Assembly: GCF_001547935.1 (NCBI RefSeq)
Contig: NZ_AP014635.1
Span: forward strand, 1,240,001-1,304,000
Direction of reading: 5' to 3'
Source of the DNA: Vibrio tritonius
GTDB lineage: Bacteria > Pseudomonadota > Gammaproteobacteria > Enterobacterales > Vibrionaceae
Length of the DNA: 64,000 nt
A program made the position numbers and the translations under genes. The notes beneath the pieces were generated by a model. That model did no database searches. It saw only the letters and a list, made by a program, of their open reading frames with translations, and had not been told where the DNA came from. Positions 4,005-12,409 of the stretch are shown one piece after another. Position 1 is the first letter of the stretch, and every line of letters starts with the position of its first letter.

Positions 4005-4222
4005 CTAAGCAGGACATGATCTTCTAAGCAGGACACACACCGTAAGTCTATGAACTAAGCCACTGCAATTGCAGTGGTTTTTTATTTCCCCGTTTTTCTA
4101 AAGAAACTGTTAACGGGACACACACCGTAATGTTAAGGGGACACACACTGTTGGGGTTGTGGTATGTGTCCCTTTAAGAACTTGGCATTATGTGTGGCGA
4201 TTAGGGTGTGTGTCCTGCTAAC
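4005..4222. repeat. Cluster of REP-like repeats with core GGACACACACC
   Basis: Four direct copies of a motif close to GTTAGCGGGACACACACC begin near 4005 (shortened), 4024, 4110 and 4132. Two inverted copies lie at 4161-4178 and 4203-4222. The mix of direct and inverted units resembles clusters of REP/BIME elements that are mobilised by REP-associated tyrosine transposases, although no such transposase is present here. The same core occurs three times inside thiM (10735-10869). The rest of the 410-bp gap between the MFS and glutathione peroxidase genes holds a terminator and no convincing ORF. Confidence 0.7.
4060..4083 (+). terminator. Rho-independent terminator after the iron/MFS operon
   Basis: The perfect 18-bp palindrome CCACTGCAATTGCAGTGG is followed directly by six T residues. 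It lies 60 bp after the MFS stop codon and is embedded between REP-like units. Confidence 0.85.
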
Positions 4223-10313: not shown

Positions 10314-11237
10314 TTAATATGGGTATCTTTCGATGTTCATTTTTAACCGTTTACTTAGTGTCGCCTCATCCAGATGATAGAGAATGTCTAACATCTCTCC
10401 GGCCAGAAAACCGGGTCCATCACATCGCTCGGCAGCAATTTCTCCAACGACGCCCCAAATTGCCGCAGCAGCTAAACCGCTGCACTCACCGACGGCAGCA
10501 AAAGCGCCAGTAAGTGAACTTAATGCGCAGCCTAAGCCAGTAACGTAAGGCATGATTGGCGAACCATTAGCTAAATAATAGTCGTGATTTTGGGTGACGA
10601 TAATATCCGTTGCTCCAGAAATAGATACATCCGTCTGATATTGCTCACGAATGTGATGAGCTGCGCTAAGGGCACTCAGCGTTGAATCCTGGCTGTCCAC
10701 CCCTTTATTACCGCGGGGTAACTCATCAATAGAAGGTGTGTGTCCCGCTAAGGGATTTACTTCTGTTGTGTTATCCAAAGGTGTGTGTCCTGCTAAGGGA
10801 TTTACTTCTGTGGTGTTATCTAAAGGTGTGTGTCCCGCTAACGCAATCACTTCTGATGCGTTGGCTCGAAGTGTGAGGTGGCGGGCGAGTGAGGCGAAGT
10901 GGCGGCTTACTTTGGTGCGATAAGTGCTGGCGCCACAGCCTACTGGGTCGAGTACGATGGGGATGTGGTGTTGGTTAGCACATTCAATGGCGTATTCCAT
11001 CTGCGCGACGCGTTTCTCATCGAGTGTGCCAATATTGACCACTAGCGCTCCAGCCAATGGTATTAGTTCGGCCATCTCTTGACGGGAGTGGGCCATGATC
11101 GGTGATGCGCCTAATGCCAAGAGGCTATTGGCACAAAGGTTCATTACGACATCGTTGGTCATGTTGATGACCAACGGACGTTCGCGGCGCACGGTTTCAA
11201 GAAAATTAGCGATCTGTTTGATGTTCATCGCGTTCAT
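10314..11237 (-). CDS. thiM: Hydroxyethylthiazole kinase with an internal repeat insertion
   Basis: ThiM phosphorylates 4-methyl-5-(2-hydroxyethyl)thiazole in thiamine salvage. The N-terminal INMTNDVVMNLCANSLLALGASP block, NIGTLDEKRV, LDPVGCGAS, RANASE and the GLGCALSSLTGAFAA block with the conserved cysteine are typical. The protein has 307 residues against about 262 in E. coli. The excess is explained by two extra 15-residue units, LDNTTEVNPLAGHTP, placed directly after the native RANASEVIALAGHTP, plus a short linker. The start ATG overlaps the thiD stop by 4 bp (ATGA), so the genes are translationally coupled under the TPP riboswitch. Whether the enlarged active-site loop is tolerated is not known; the frame is intact. 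Confidence 0.88.
   Translation of the reverse strand: MNAMNIKQIANFLETVRRERPLVINMTNDVVMNLCANSLLALGASPIMAHSRQEMAELIPLAGALVVNIGTLDEKRVAQMEYAIECANQHHIPIVLDPVGCGASTYRTKVSRHFASLARHLTLRANASEVIALAGHTPLDNTTEVNPLAGHTPLDNTTEVNPLAGHTPSIDELPRGNKGVDSQDSTLSALSAAHHIREQYQTDVSISGATDIIVTQNHDYYLANGSPIMPYVTGLGCALSSLTGAFAAVGECSGLAAAAIWGVVGEIAAERCDGPGFLAGEMLDILYHLDEATLSKRLKMNIERYPY
10735..10869. repeat. Three tandem 45-bp units inside thiM
   Basis: Units at 10735-10779 and 10780-10824 differ at only three positions. The unit at 10825-10869 is more diverged but alignable over the full 45 bp; it encodes the native NASE motif region (RANASEVIALAGHTP). The other two encode LDNTTEVNPLAGHTP. Each begins on the plus strand with GGTGTGTGTCC, the reverse complement of the REP-like core found at 4005-4222. 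Confidence 0.9.
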
Positions 11238-12106
11238 CGTGCCTCCGCATTATTGGTACTGGCCATTTGCGCGCTGTCTAGCGCATAAAAGTGATGAACT
11301 GGCCCATGACCTTGACCCACTTGGAGTCGATGGCTTTGGCGTAGTGCTTGGGTGAGATAAACCTTCGCTGTTGCGATCGCTTCTTCGAGCGTGCTACCCA
11401 GTGCTAACTGCGTTGCAATTGCAGACGAAAGCGTACACCCCGTGCCGTGAGTATTGTGGGTTGCGATACGTGGGCCGTTAAACGTGGTGATTCTGTTACG
11501 CTTAATCAGATAATCCTCAGCTTGATGAGGATCGTCGCTGTGGCCGCCTTTGAGCAAAACAGGATAATCAAAGCGCGCCAGTGCCGAGCGAAGGCGAGCG
11601 ACGTTGGTGTAATGGAATGGTTGGTTGACCATGATTGCCGCTTCGTAAAAATTAGGGGTTACCAACGAGGCGAAAGGAAACAGAGTTTGACACAAGGTAT
11701 CAATGGCATCAGGGGAGACTAAACGGTCACCACTGGTCGCGACCATCACTGGGTCAATCACCACATGTTGGATAGCATATTGGTTTAGTTTCGCCGCAAC
11801 GGCTTCGATAATGGCGACATTGGGCAGCATGCCGATTTTAATCGCATCGATATGAATATCGGAAAGTACCGCATCAAGCTGAGCCGCCACATTCGCTGGT
11901 GGGATGGGGTGAATATCCATGACGCCGCAACTGTTTTGTGCTGTTACTGCAGTAATCACGCTACAAGCAAACCCACCATTTGCGCTAATGGCTTTGATAT
12001 CGGCTTGAATCCCCGCGCCACCACCACTATCAGAACCTGCGATGGTTAGAATATTAGGTAGGGGAGATGAGGTAGATAAGGAAGAAATGTCTGTTTTAGA
12101 GTTCAT
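11234..12106 (-). CDS. thiD: Hydroxymethylpyrimidine/phosphomethylpyrimidine kinase
   Basis: A 290-residue PfkB/ribokinase-fold enzyme that phosphorylates HMP and HMP-P for thiamine synthesis. It shows ILTIAGSDSGGGAGIQADIK near the N-terminus, VIDPVMVATSGDRL in the middle, LLKGGHS and the anion-hole motif THGTGCTLSSAIA near residues 225-237. The frame is open to 12211, but I chose the ATG at 12106 because it has a TGAGGAG ribosome site and the extra 35 residues would run back to the riboswitch boundary. It is the first gene of thiD-thiM, the reverse of the E. coli thiM-thiD order. Confidence 0.93.
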   Translation of the reverse strand: MNSKTDISSLSTSSPLPNILTIAGSDSGGGAGIQADIKAISANGGFACSVITAVTAQNSCGVMDIHPIPPANVAAQLDAVLSDIHIDAIKIGMLPNVAIIEAVAAKLNQYAIQHVVIDPVMVATSGDRLVSPDAIDTLCQTLFPFASLVTPNFYEAAIMVNQPFHYTNVARLRSALARFDYPVLLKGGHSDDPHQAEDYLIKRNRITTFNGPRIATHNTHGTGCTLSSAIATQLALGSTLEEAIATAKVYLTQALRQSHRLQVGQGHGPVHHFYALDSAQMASTNNAEAR

Positions 12107-12114
12107 GGTTGTGC

Positions 12115-12134
12115 TCCTCAACATGACATGAGGA
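12115..12134 (-). promoter_or_regulatory. Hairpin that can sequester the thiD ribosome-binding site
   Basis: On the mRNA, UCCUCA pairs with UGAGGA, the thiD Shine-Dalgarno, around an 8-nt loop. Upstream, CTAAGG...CCTTAG (12140-12159) forms another hairpin. No T tract follows either stem, so the TPP riboswitch probably acts on translation initiation and not through termination. Confidence 0.6.
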
Positions 12135-12210
12135 ACCAACCTAAGGCACAAACACCTTAGTGATTGTCGTTGGTAAATGATCGGTAAATGGATCGCGCCG
12201 CAGACACTCA

Positions 12211-12289
12211 TAGTTCCCTACGTCAGTGTTAACTGAATCAGGTTCAACGGGTCTCGCAAAGCGATCTCAGCCAAATGGCACCCCGACTA
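12211..12289 (-). promoter_or_regulatory. TPP (THI-box) riboswitch
   Basis: Read on the minus strand, the element has the diagnostic order GGGGTGC, CTGAGA, ACCCGTTGAACCTGAT and GTAGGGAA, all conserved parts of the TPP-binding aptamer. It lies about 105 nt before the thiD start and would reduce thiDM expression when thiamine pyrophosphate is abundant. The rest of the 303-bp gap to the tetR gene holds only its presumed promoter. Confidence 0.97.
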
Positions 12290-12409
12290 TCGGCTTTTAT
12301 CCTAACAACTTAGATTAAATTAGCAATCAATTAATCACTCTAAGAGGTGAGTGTTACTCTTAAAGTCTCTACTGAGTTAGCGAATTAGTTCGCGAAGTAA
12401 CGCTTGCTT

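What the first reader, a model, noticed from the sequence alone, without database searches (positions are those of the whole stretch)
10735..10869. ThiM has an in-frame triplication of its active-site NASE segment
The native RANASEVIALAGHTP is followed by two near-identical LDNTTEVNPLAGHTP units, adding about 45 residues in a conserved kinase. The unit is 45 bp, a multiple of 3, so copy number can change without breaking the frame. The NASE loop contacts nucleotide or Mg in this family, so the expansion could tune or kill thiazole salvage. The two outer copies differ at 3 of 45 positions, implying recent amplification.
Basis: partly seen in the sequence, partly recalled or inferred. Interest (0 to 1): 0.75.

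Follow-up and report, generated by a model that had tools for sequence, protein, structure and literature searches.

The report
Mobile DNA repeats inside thiamine kinase
A vitamin B1 salvage enzyme in a marine bacterium carries an extra stretch of protein built around a short DNA repeat that also marks the ends of many transposase genes in the same genome, which suggests that a spreading repeat has been absorbed into working enzymes without breaking them.

Summary
The 45-bp repeat (2.9 copies, window 10733-10867, minus strand, in thiM) is real; the interpretation changes. Each unit holds a dispersed repeat, TWARCRGGACACACACCKTWA, found at 47 places in this genome (reversed control 1). The motif flanks the genome's 18 full-length RAYT-like transposase genes as inverted ends: 45 correctly oriented copies against 2. 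These proteins carry the marks of TnpA_Y1 subclass 2.3, for which a published survey found no repeat. Of 227 genus genomes, all 17 with the motif have such a transposase, as do 52 of the 210 without it. The repeat is also translated in cobB (4 copies; 1 in the sister species) and xdhC (2). ThiM's 37-residue insert lies in a loop that is disordered in a solved homologue; the rest of thiM is under strong purifying selection (dN/dS 0.07). The sister has the same number of extra units, changed in concert. NASE itself occurs once, intact. This is a new variant of a known kind (in-frame REP/RPE insertions). How the repeat moves is inferred; within-species copy-number variation was not testable here.

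The parts
10314..11237 (-). thiM, hydroxyethylthiazole kinase, 307 aa
   Evidence: Pfam HK PF02110 E 1.5e-61; solved homologues
10716..10826 (-). 111-bp (37-aa) insert relative to 24 other ThiM of the genus (residues 138-174 in the alignment)
   Evidence: alignment A1; pLDDT below 50 for residues 138-183
10823..10867 (-). repeat unit 1: native NASE segment ending in the motif
   Evidence: 78% to the reference copy
10778..10822 (-). repeat unit 2 (TPLDNTTEVNPLAGH in the reading)
10733..10777 (-). repeat unit 3 (TPLDNTTEVNPLAGH in the reading)
10851..10862 (-). native NASE codons (residues 126-129), present once
10825..10841 (-). dispersed motif copy in unit 1
10780..10796 (-). dispersed motif copy in unit 2
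10735..10751 (-). dispersed motif copy in unit 3
4025..4221. intergenic cluster of the same motif, both orientations (four copies match the 17-nt pattern, one more matches the core with one mismatch)
   Evidence: also in G102
11234..12211 (-). thiD ORF next to thiM (true start probably further in)
12198..12295 (-). TPP riboswitch before thiD-thiM
   Evidence: Rfam RF00059, 78.4 bits

Best explanation
The insert in ThiM is a small array of a dispersed terminal repeat that belongs to a family of IS200-like HUH (RAYT-like, TnpA_Y1 subclass 2.3 type) transposases. SHOWN: the motif is dispersed, marks the ends of these transposase genes, occurs in frame in thiM, cobB and xdhC, and the thiM and cobB arrays differ between this species and its sister. 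INFERRED: (1) A copy of the repeat entered thiM where the native sequence already matched part of it (ALAG codons, GCGTTAGCGGG, as seen in some relatives), probably through transposase-made single-stranded DNA. (2) The new NASE-motif segment was then tandemly duplicated in 45-bp steps. (3) Repeated gain and loss or gene conversion homogenised the extra units separately in each species. The array is tolerated because the 11-nt core has no stop codon in any of its six frames and because it extends a loop that is already disordered, so the kinase should remain active.
For: 47 motif places in the own genome, reversed control 1. 18 full-length transposase genes, all 18 with NHYH, WE and YVDLNP. Within 400 nt of the gene, 45 correctly oriented copies against 2 in own loci, and 69 against 6 in 29 loci from 29 other genomes; reversed-motif controls 1 and 2 copies. 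All 17 motif-bearing genomes of 227 have the transposase, as do 52 of the other 210 (Fisher p 3.5e-10, which ignores relatedness). CobB: 4 copies here, 1 in G102 with no length change, none in the 10 other loci read. XdhC: two copies in G000 and G102, none in the 10 other loci read. Concerted change in thiM. Purifying selection. Disordered loop. Open core in six frames.
Against: No movement of the repeat was observed, and no transposase was shown to bind or cut it. 2 of 18 own and 3 of 29 other transposase loci lack a correctly oriented copy at up to one mismatch. 52 genomes have the transposase without this exact motif. The spacer of the thiM units resembles native thiM, so part of the growth is plain tandem duplication. 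No donor array with the cobB spacers was found in the genome. The one thiM copy tested folds poorly as DNA (-0.7 kcal/mol, z -0.8) compared with the best copy tested (-4.2).
Confidence: 0.7

Rival explanations
1. Ordinary replication slippage duplicated a 45-bp piece of thiM twice. The match of its core to the dispersed motif is incidental or only a seed, and no mobile element was involved.
For: 17 of 28 spacer bases match the native NASE segment; steps of 45 and 45 are multiples of 3; some relatives (L017, L037, L042) natively carry TTAGCGGG at this site.
Against: The full 17-nt motif matches a family of 47 places where the reversed control gives 1, and the same motif sits in frame in cobB and xdhC with unrelated spacers. 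The 7 residues beyond the two units are unexplained.
Confidence: 0.15
2. The motif is a host signal (binding site of a chromosomal or regulatory protein) that spread for its function. Transposase genes merely carry or exploit it.
For: An intergenic cluster is present in two species; nearly equal numbers on both strands (24 and 23).
Against: The motif occurs only in genomes that have the transposase (17 of 17), and it lies inverted around the gene with a peak near -156.
Confidence: 0.08
3. The array is now kept for a use in the protein, for example to adjust ThiM stability, trimer packing or the closing of the active-site loop.
For: All 4 differences between extra units within the two genomes are synonymous (p about 0.004). 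The insert is kept in both species across dS 0.31. The homologous loop is suggested to change on substrate soaking (PMC4785402, passages read).
Against: Only four differences; recent homogenisation alone leaves few differences. dN/dS of the insert stretch (0.27) is four times that of the rest. Predicted disordered.
Confidence: 0.15

Closest known systems
REP sequences inside genes (Di Nocera et al. 2013, PMC3733652; abstract and passages read)
   Same: Short dispersed repeats, the GTAG kind linked to RAYT-type transposases, lie inside ORFs of known function and are translated; clusters can add tens of residues.
   Different: Those are GTAG- or CGTC-tagged palindromes. Here the repeat has no such tag, is a TIR-like motif, and the arrays differ between sister species.
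TIRYT/TIRtron repeats (same paper, passages)
   Same: RAYT-like genes flanked by inverted repeats, some with GGGGWSAS, and moderate dispersed families in dimers or clusters. Some copies here read GGGGACAC.
   Different: In the passages read, in-gene copies are reported for GTAG and CGTC elements only. According to PMC6006769 (section 15, first part) the 26 published TIRYTs fall in subclasses 2.1, 2.2 and 2.5, not 2.3.
TnpA_Y1 subclass 2.3 (Quentin et al. 2018, PMC6006769; abstract, section 12 and the first part of section 15 read)
   Same: NHYH, WE, YVDLNP, about 320 aa, many diverged copies per genome.
   Different: That survey reports no REP-like sequence near subclass 2.3; here an oriented motif flanks 16 of 18 own and 26 of 29 other loci.
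Rickettsia palindromic elements (RPE); known here from passages of PMC3733652 and recall
   Same: Spread in frame into unrelated protein genes.
   Different: RPEs are longer palindromes (recalled), and the CGTC-tagged kind is said to lack a dedicated transposase; here the motif is about 21 nt with a candidate transposase.
REP insertions within subclass 2.4 tnpA genes (PMC6006769, section 12)
   Same: In-frame repeats in a variable, peripheral part of a protein.
   Different: There the target is the transposase itself; here host metabolic enzymes.

Membership tests
ThiM / hydroxyethylthiazole kinase (PF02110) | Family profile match over the cut-off | tested here: met
   208.3 bits against a cut-off of 27
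ThiM / hydroxyethylthiazole kinase (PF02110) | Conserved residues kept (N126, E129, C237 and other invariant columns) | tested here: met
   alignment A1 of 26 sequences; which of them are catalytic is recalled
ThiM / hydroxyethylthiazole kinase (PF02110) | Kinase activity | not testable with these tools
   only selection and gene context speak for it
TnpA_Y1 subclass 2.3 (the transposases) | NHYH, WE and YVDLNP motifs | tested here: met
   18 of 18 own proteins. In 29 other-genome loci: NHYH 27, YVDLNP 25, WE 16; one locus (L134) gave no protein in the script
TnpA_Y1 subclass 2.3 (the transposases) | Length near 325 aa, several diverged copies per genome | tested here: met
   median 320 aa; 18 full-length copies, the other 17 being 52-72% identical to the query copy
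TnpA_Y1 subclass 2.3 (the transposases) | Placement by the published subclass profiles or tree | not tested
   the profiles are not held here; NCBIfam REP_Tyr_transpos matches 4 of 4 scanned but below its cut-off; Pfam Y1_Tnp matches 2 of 4 and only 3 places of the own genome
GTAG-type REP | GT[AG]G tag next to a GC-rich hairpin | tested here: not met
   consensus of 47 copies has no such tag; a copy with TTAACGG/CCGTTA folds at -4.2 kcal/mol, two others at -0.7 and -0.8
TIR family of a TIRtron | Inverted repeats at a regular distance on both sides of a RAYT-like gene | tested here: met
   at up to one mismatch, both ends in 10 of 18 own and 15 of 29 other loci, at least one end in 16 and 26; the regular distance is clearest upstream
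TIR family of a TIRtron | GGGGWSAS motif | tested here: inconclusive
   some copies read GGGGACAC, the consensus is CRGGACAC

The most novel reading that the evidence does not exclude
Subclass 2.3 HUH transposases write their short terminal repeat into sites that already match part of it, genes included, and local arrays then grow and are homogenised. This gives the host translated, stop-free, disordered loops in core enzymes (ThiM, CobB, XdhC) whose number and sequence change between sister species. A transposase class reported to have no repeat would then be the source of a protein-lengthening mutation system.
Probability: 0.3. Interest if true: 0.78.

Novelty: new variant of a known kind. 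Interest (0 to 1): 0.58.

Why it matters
It supplies a candidate cognate repeat for a group of RAYT-like transposases that a published survey found to have none, in a genus where the association can be tested across dozens of genomes. It also gives a natural comparison (cobB: one copy in the sister species, four here) for how a short repeat enters and grows inside a conserved enzyme without breaking its frame. That bears on how REP-like repeats spread at all, which the papers seen call hypothesised (PMC3733652, abstract) or poorly understood (PMC8266576, abstract in a search listing).

Tried and rejected
Assembly artefact: rejected, because the genome has two contigs and the sister genome carries the same kind of array. 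Kinase killed by the insert: rejected on dN/dS. Stable mRNA structure in the array: weak, z -1.6, 14 of 200 shuffles fold at least as well. A donor array elsewhere for cobB: none found beyond short or 73-76% partial matches. LacZ as a further insertion: the motif is there, but the protein is only 2 residues longer at that place than a solved homologue, so it is not counted. The allantoate-amidohydrolase-like LTGHTP (L106) and the motif on the opposite strand of a nitrogenase-cofactor-like gene (L104, named by eye) may be chance. The M16-peptidase-like copies (L102, L109) were not compared with relatives beyond the sister. The search for related loci with ThiM in genome contigs gave no relatives. 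Literature: searches for the motif letters (45 papers hold one of them, 20 listed, none of those on this repeat), for RAYT with Vibrio (192 papers, 20 listed), RAYT/REPIN/IS200 (25 papers, 20 listed), Vibrio with REP and tyrosine transposase (1 paper), TIRYT/TIRtron (2 papers) and TnpAREP or RAYT with marine taxa (794 papers, 15 listed). In these listings and the passages read I saw no description of this repeat; only open-licence PubMed Central papers are held, and a lack of notice is not proof.

Full report
WHAT IS THERE. The tandem repeat is real: period 45, 2.9 copies, 10733-10862, three copies at 10733, 10778 and 10823, in frame in thiM at 10314-11237 on the minus strand. thiM follows thiD behind a TPP riboswitch at 12198-12295. 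I aligned 26 ThiM: the window's and 25 of the 29 other loci held; L011, L016, L024 and L030 were left out because no clean start was found. Only the window and its sister genome G102 (93% amino-acid identity) have the insert; the other 24 have none. Three of the four left out (L011, L024, L030) also read without insert; L016 gave no ORF. The insert is 37 residues: two 15-residue units and 7 more. Of the 196 genomes searched, 115 have a match. G000 and G102 are the only listed matches that run through residues 136-177 in one piece; the list is cut. NASE itself is present once.

THE UNIT CARRIES A GENOME-WIDE REPEAT. Searching the own genome with the array gave 49 matches at E up to 10, itself included, many of them to the part that reads TTAGCRGGACACACACC. 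The pattern TTARSRGGACACACACC with up to one mismatch has 47 places, 24 on one strand and 23 on the other, against 1 for the reversed control. The 47 copies give the consensus TWARCRGGACACACACCKTWA. By context, 33 of 47 lie in no ORF of 100 aa or more and 3 in one spurious-looking 102-aa ORF. Of the other 11, 10 are read on the same strand in recognisable genes: thiM 3, an M16-peptidase-like gene 2 (named by eye), cobB 2, xdhC 1, lacZ 1 and an allantoate-amidohydrolase-like gene 1 (families for the last four genes). One is antisense in a nitrogenase-cofactor-like gene (by eye). With a looser motif cobB has 4 and xdhC 2 copies. The 11-nt core has no stop in any of six frames.

THE REPEAT MARKS TRANSPOSASE ENDS. 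Two motif clusters enclose genes of about 320 aa. These and two further ones match NCBIfam REP_Tyr_transpos, all four below its cut-off; two of the four match Pfam Y1_Tnp. The Pfam family alone finds only 3 places in the own genome. A protein search with one of them finds 20, of which 18 are full length. Within 400 nt of these 18 genes there are 45 motif copies (up to one mismatch) in the inverted, end-like orientation and 2 in the other. 16 of 18 loci have at least one correct copy and 10 have both ends, with a peak at about -156 upstream. In 29 loci, each from a different other genome, the numbers are 69 against 6, 26 of 29, and 15 with both ends. Reversed-motif controls give 1 and 2 copies. 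The loci around three divergent transposases have a variant GGACAGACAC, which counts as one mismatch where it lies close enough. Across 227 genomes of the genus the motif (TWARSRGGACACACAC) occurs in 17, with 1 reversed-control match in all, and the transposase (E up to 1e-40) in 69; all 17 are among the 69. Fisher gives p 3.5e-10, which ignores relatedness of the genomes and so overstates certainty. 52 genomes have the transposase without this motif.

WHICH TRANSPOSASES. All 18 have NHYH, WE and YVDLNP and a median length of 320 aa; among the 29 other loci 27 have NHYH, 25 YVDLNP and 16 WE. These are the published marks of TnpA_Y1 subclass 2.3 (PMC6006769, section 12 and first part of section 15). 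That paper states that neither automatic nor manual searches found REP-like sequences for subclasses 2.1 and 2.3. Di Nocera et al. 2013 (PMC3733652, abstract and passages) describe RAYT-like genes flanked by terminal inverted repeats, some with GGGGWSAS, and REPs inside genes. I did not see their figures or supplements.

OTHER GENES SHOW THE PROCESS. cobB here has four in-frame copies at steps of 33, 32 and 34 bp. The sister G102 has exactly one, with no change of length against G142; the 10 other loci read, G142 among them, have none. The net length difference to the sister is 96 bp. Because single steps of 32 and 34 would shift the frame, the extra copies were probably gained together or were filtered by selection (inference). 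The spacers differ from each other and no donor array was found. xdhC has two copies 33 bp apart near its start in both species and none in the 10 other loci read; its N-terminus varies among relatives, so this is less clean.

EVOLUTION OF THE THIM ARRAY. Within the window the extra units differ at 3 of 45 bases, in the sister at 1; between species at 7 to 9; the native unit at 1. So the extra units changed together in each lineage, by conversion or by loss and regain. All four within-genome differences are synonymous (chance about 0.004; small numbers). Outside a 40-codon stretch around the insert, thiM has dN/dS 0.067 at dS 0.31; inside it 0.27. The spacer matches the native NASE stretch at 17 of 28 bases (p 2e-5), so duplication of the native segment is part of the story. 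Relatives L017 and L042 natively read GCGTTAGCGGG here, and L037 GCTTTAGCGGG, the first part of the motif: a possible landing or seeding site.

EFFECT ON THE PROTEIN. The predicted fold is confident over most of its length (mean pLDDT 82.6) except for residues 138-183, below 50. The sister's ThiM aligns to S. aureus ThiM up to its residue 128 before the insert and again from 131 after it; the window's first stretch ends at 129. In the S. aureus crystal structure loop 126-140 had no density, and a slightly changed fold there on substrate soaking is suggested (PMC4785402, passages). A tolerated, disordered loop is therefore the likely outcome.

REACH. A scan of genome contigs for two cores 14-44 bp apart gave 59 stretches: 17 in named Vibrio, one in Photobacterium, the rest nearly all metagenome bins, some probably unrelated. 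21 of 59 also hold a transposase match at E up to 1e-10, some partial. One bin (L162) has such an array in a reading frame with Pyr_redox_2 and AIRS domains; of the ten ORFs over arrays that I scanned, four had a Pfam match.

WHO. A transposase between AvrE-like and HrpE-like ORFs (read by eye) resembles what a paper on Vibrio porteresiae reports (PMC12625758, one passage), so that species or a near relative is likely; this is inference.

VERDICT. Movement, binding and any benefit are unproven.

Noticed in passing
window 4025-4221: Intergenic cluster of the same motif in both orientations; copies also found at similar spacing in G102 (C1:1292980-1293177).
   Followed up: partly
L107:2105-3640 (cobB, own genome): Four in-frame motif copies, 32 residues longer than the sister CobB, which has a single copy without length change.
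   Followed up: yes
L105:1409-2347 (xdhC, own genome): Two motif copies 33 bp apart encode part of the N-terminus, in this species and its sister only among 12 loci read.
   Followed up: partly
L102 and L109 (M16-peptidase-like genes): Two single in-frame motif copies (KxDTHL) shared by both species; not compared with other relatives.
   Followed up: no
L077, L078, L079: Loci of divergent transposases of the same kind have a variant motif GGACAGACAC, as if repeat and transposase change together.
   Followed up: no
L162:1600-3873: Gammaproteobacterial bin with a two-copy array in frame at the start of an AIRS domain fused to a pyridine-nucleotide oxidoreductase.
   Followed up: partly
window 11234-12211: The longest thiD ORF overlaps the TPP riboswitch (12198-12295), so the true start is probably the internal MNSKTDISS methionine.
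   Followed up: no
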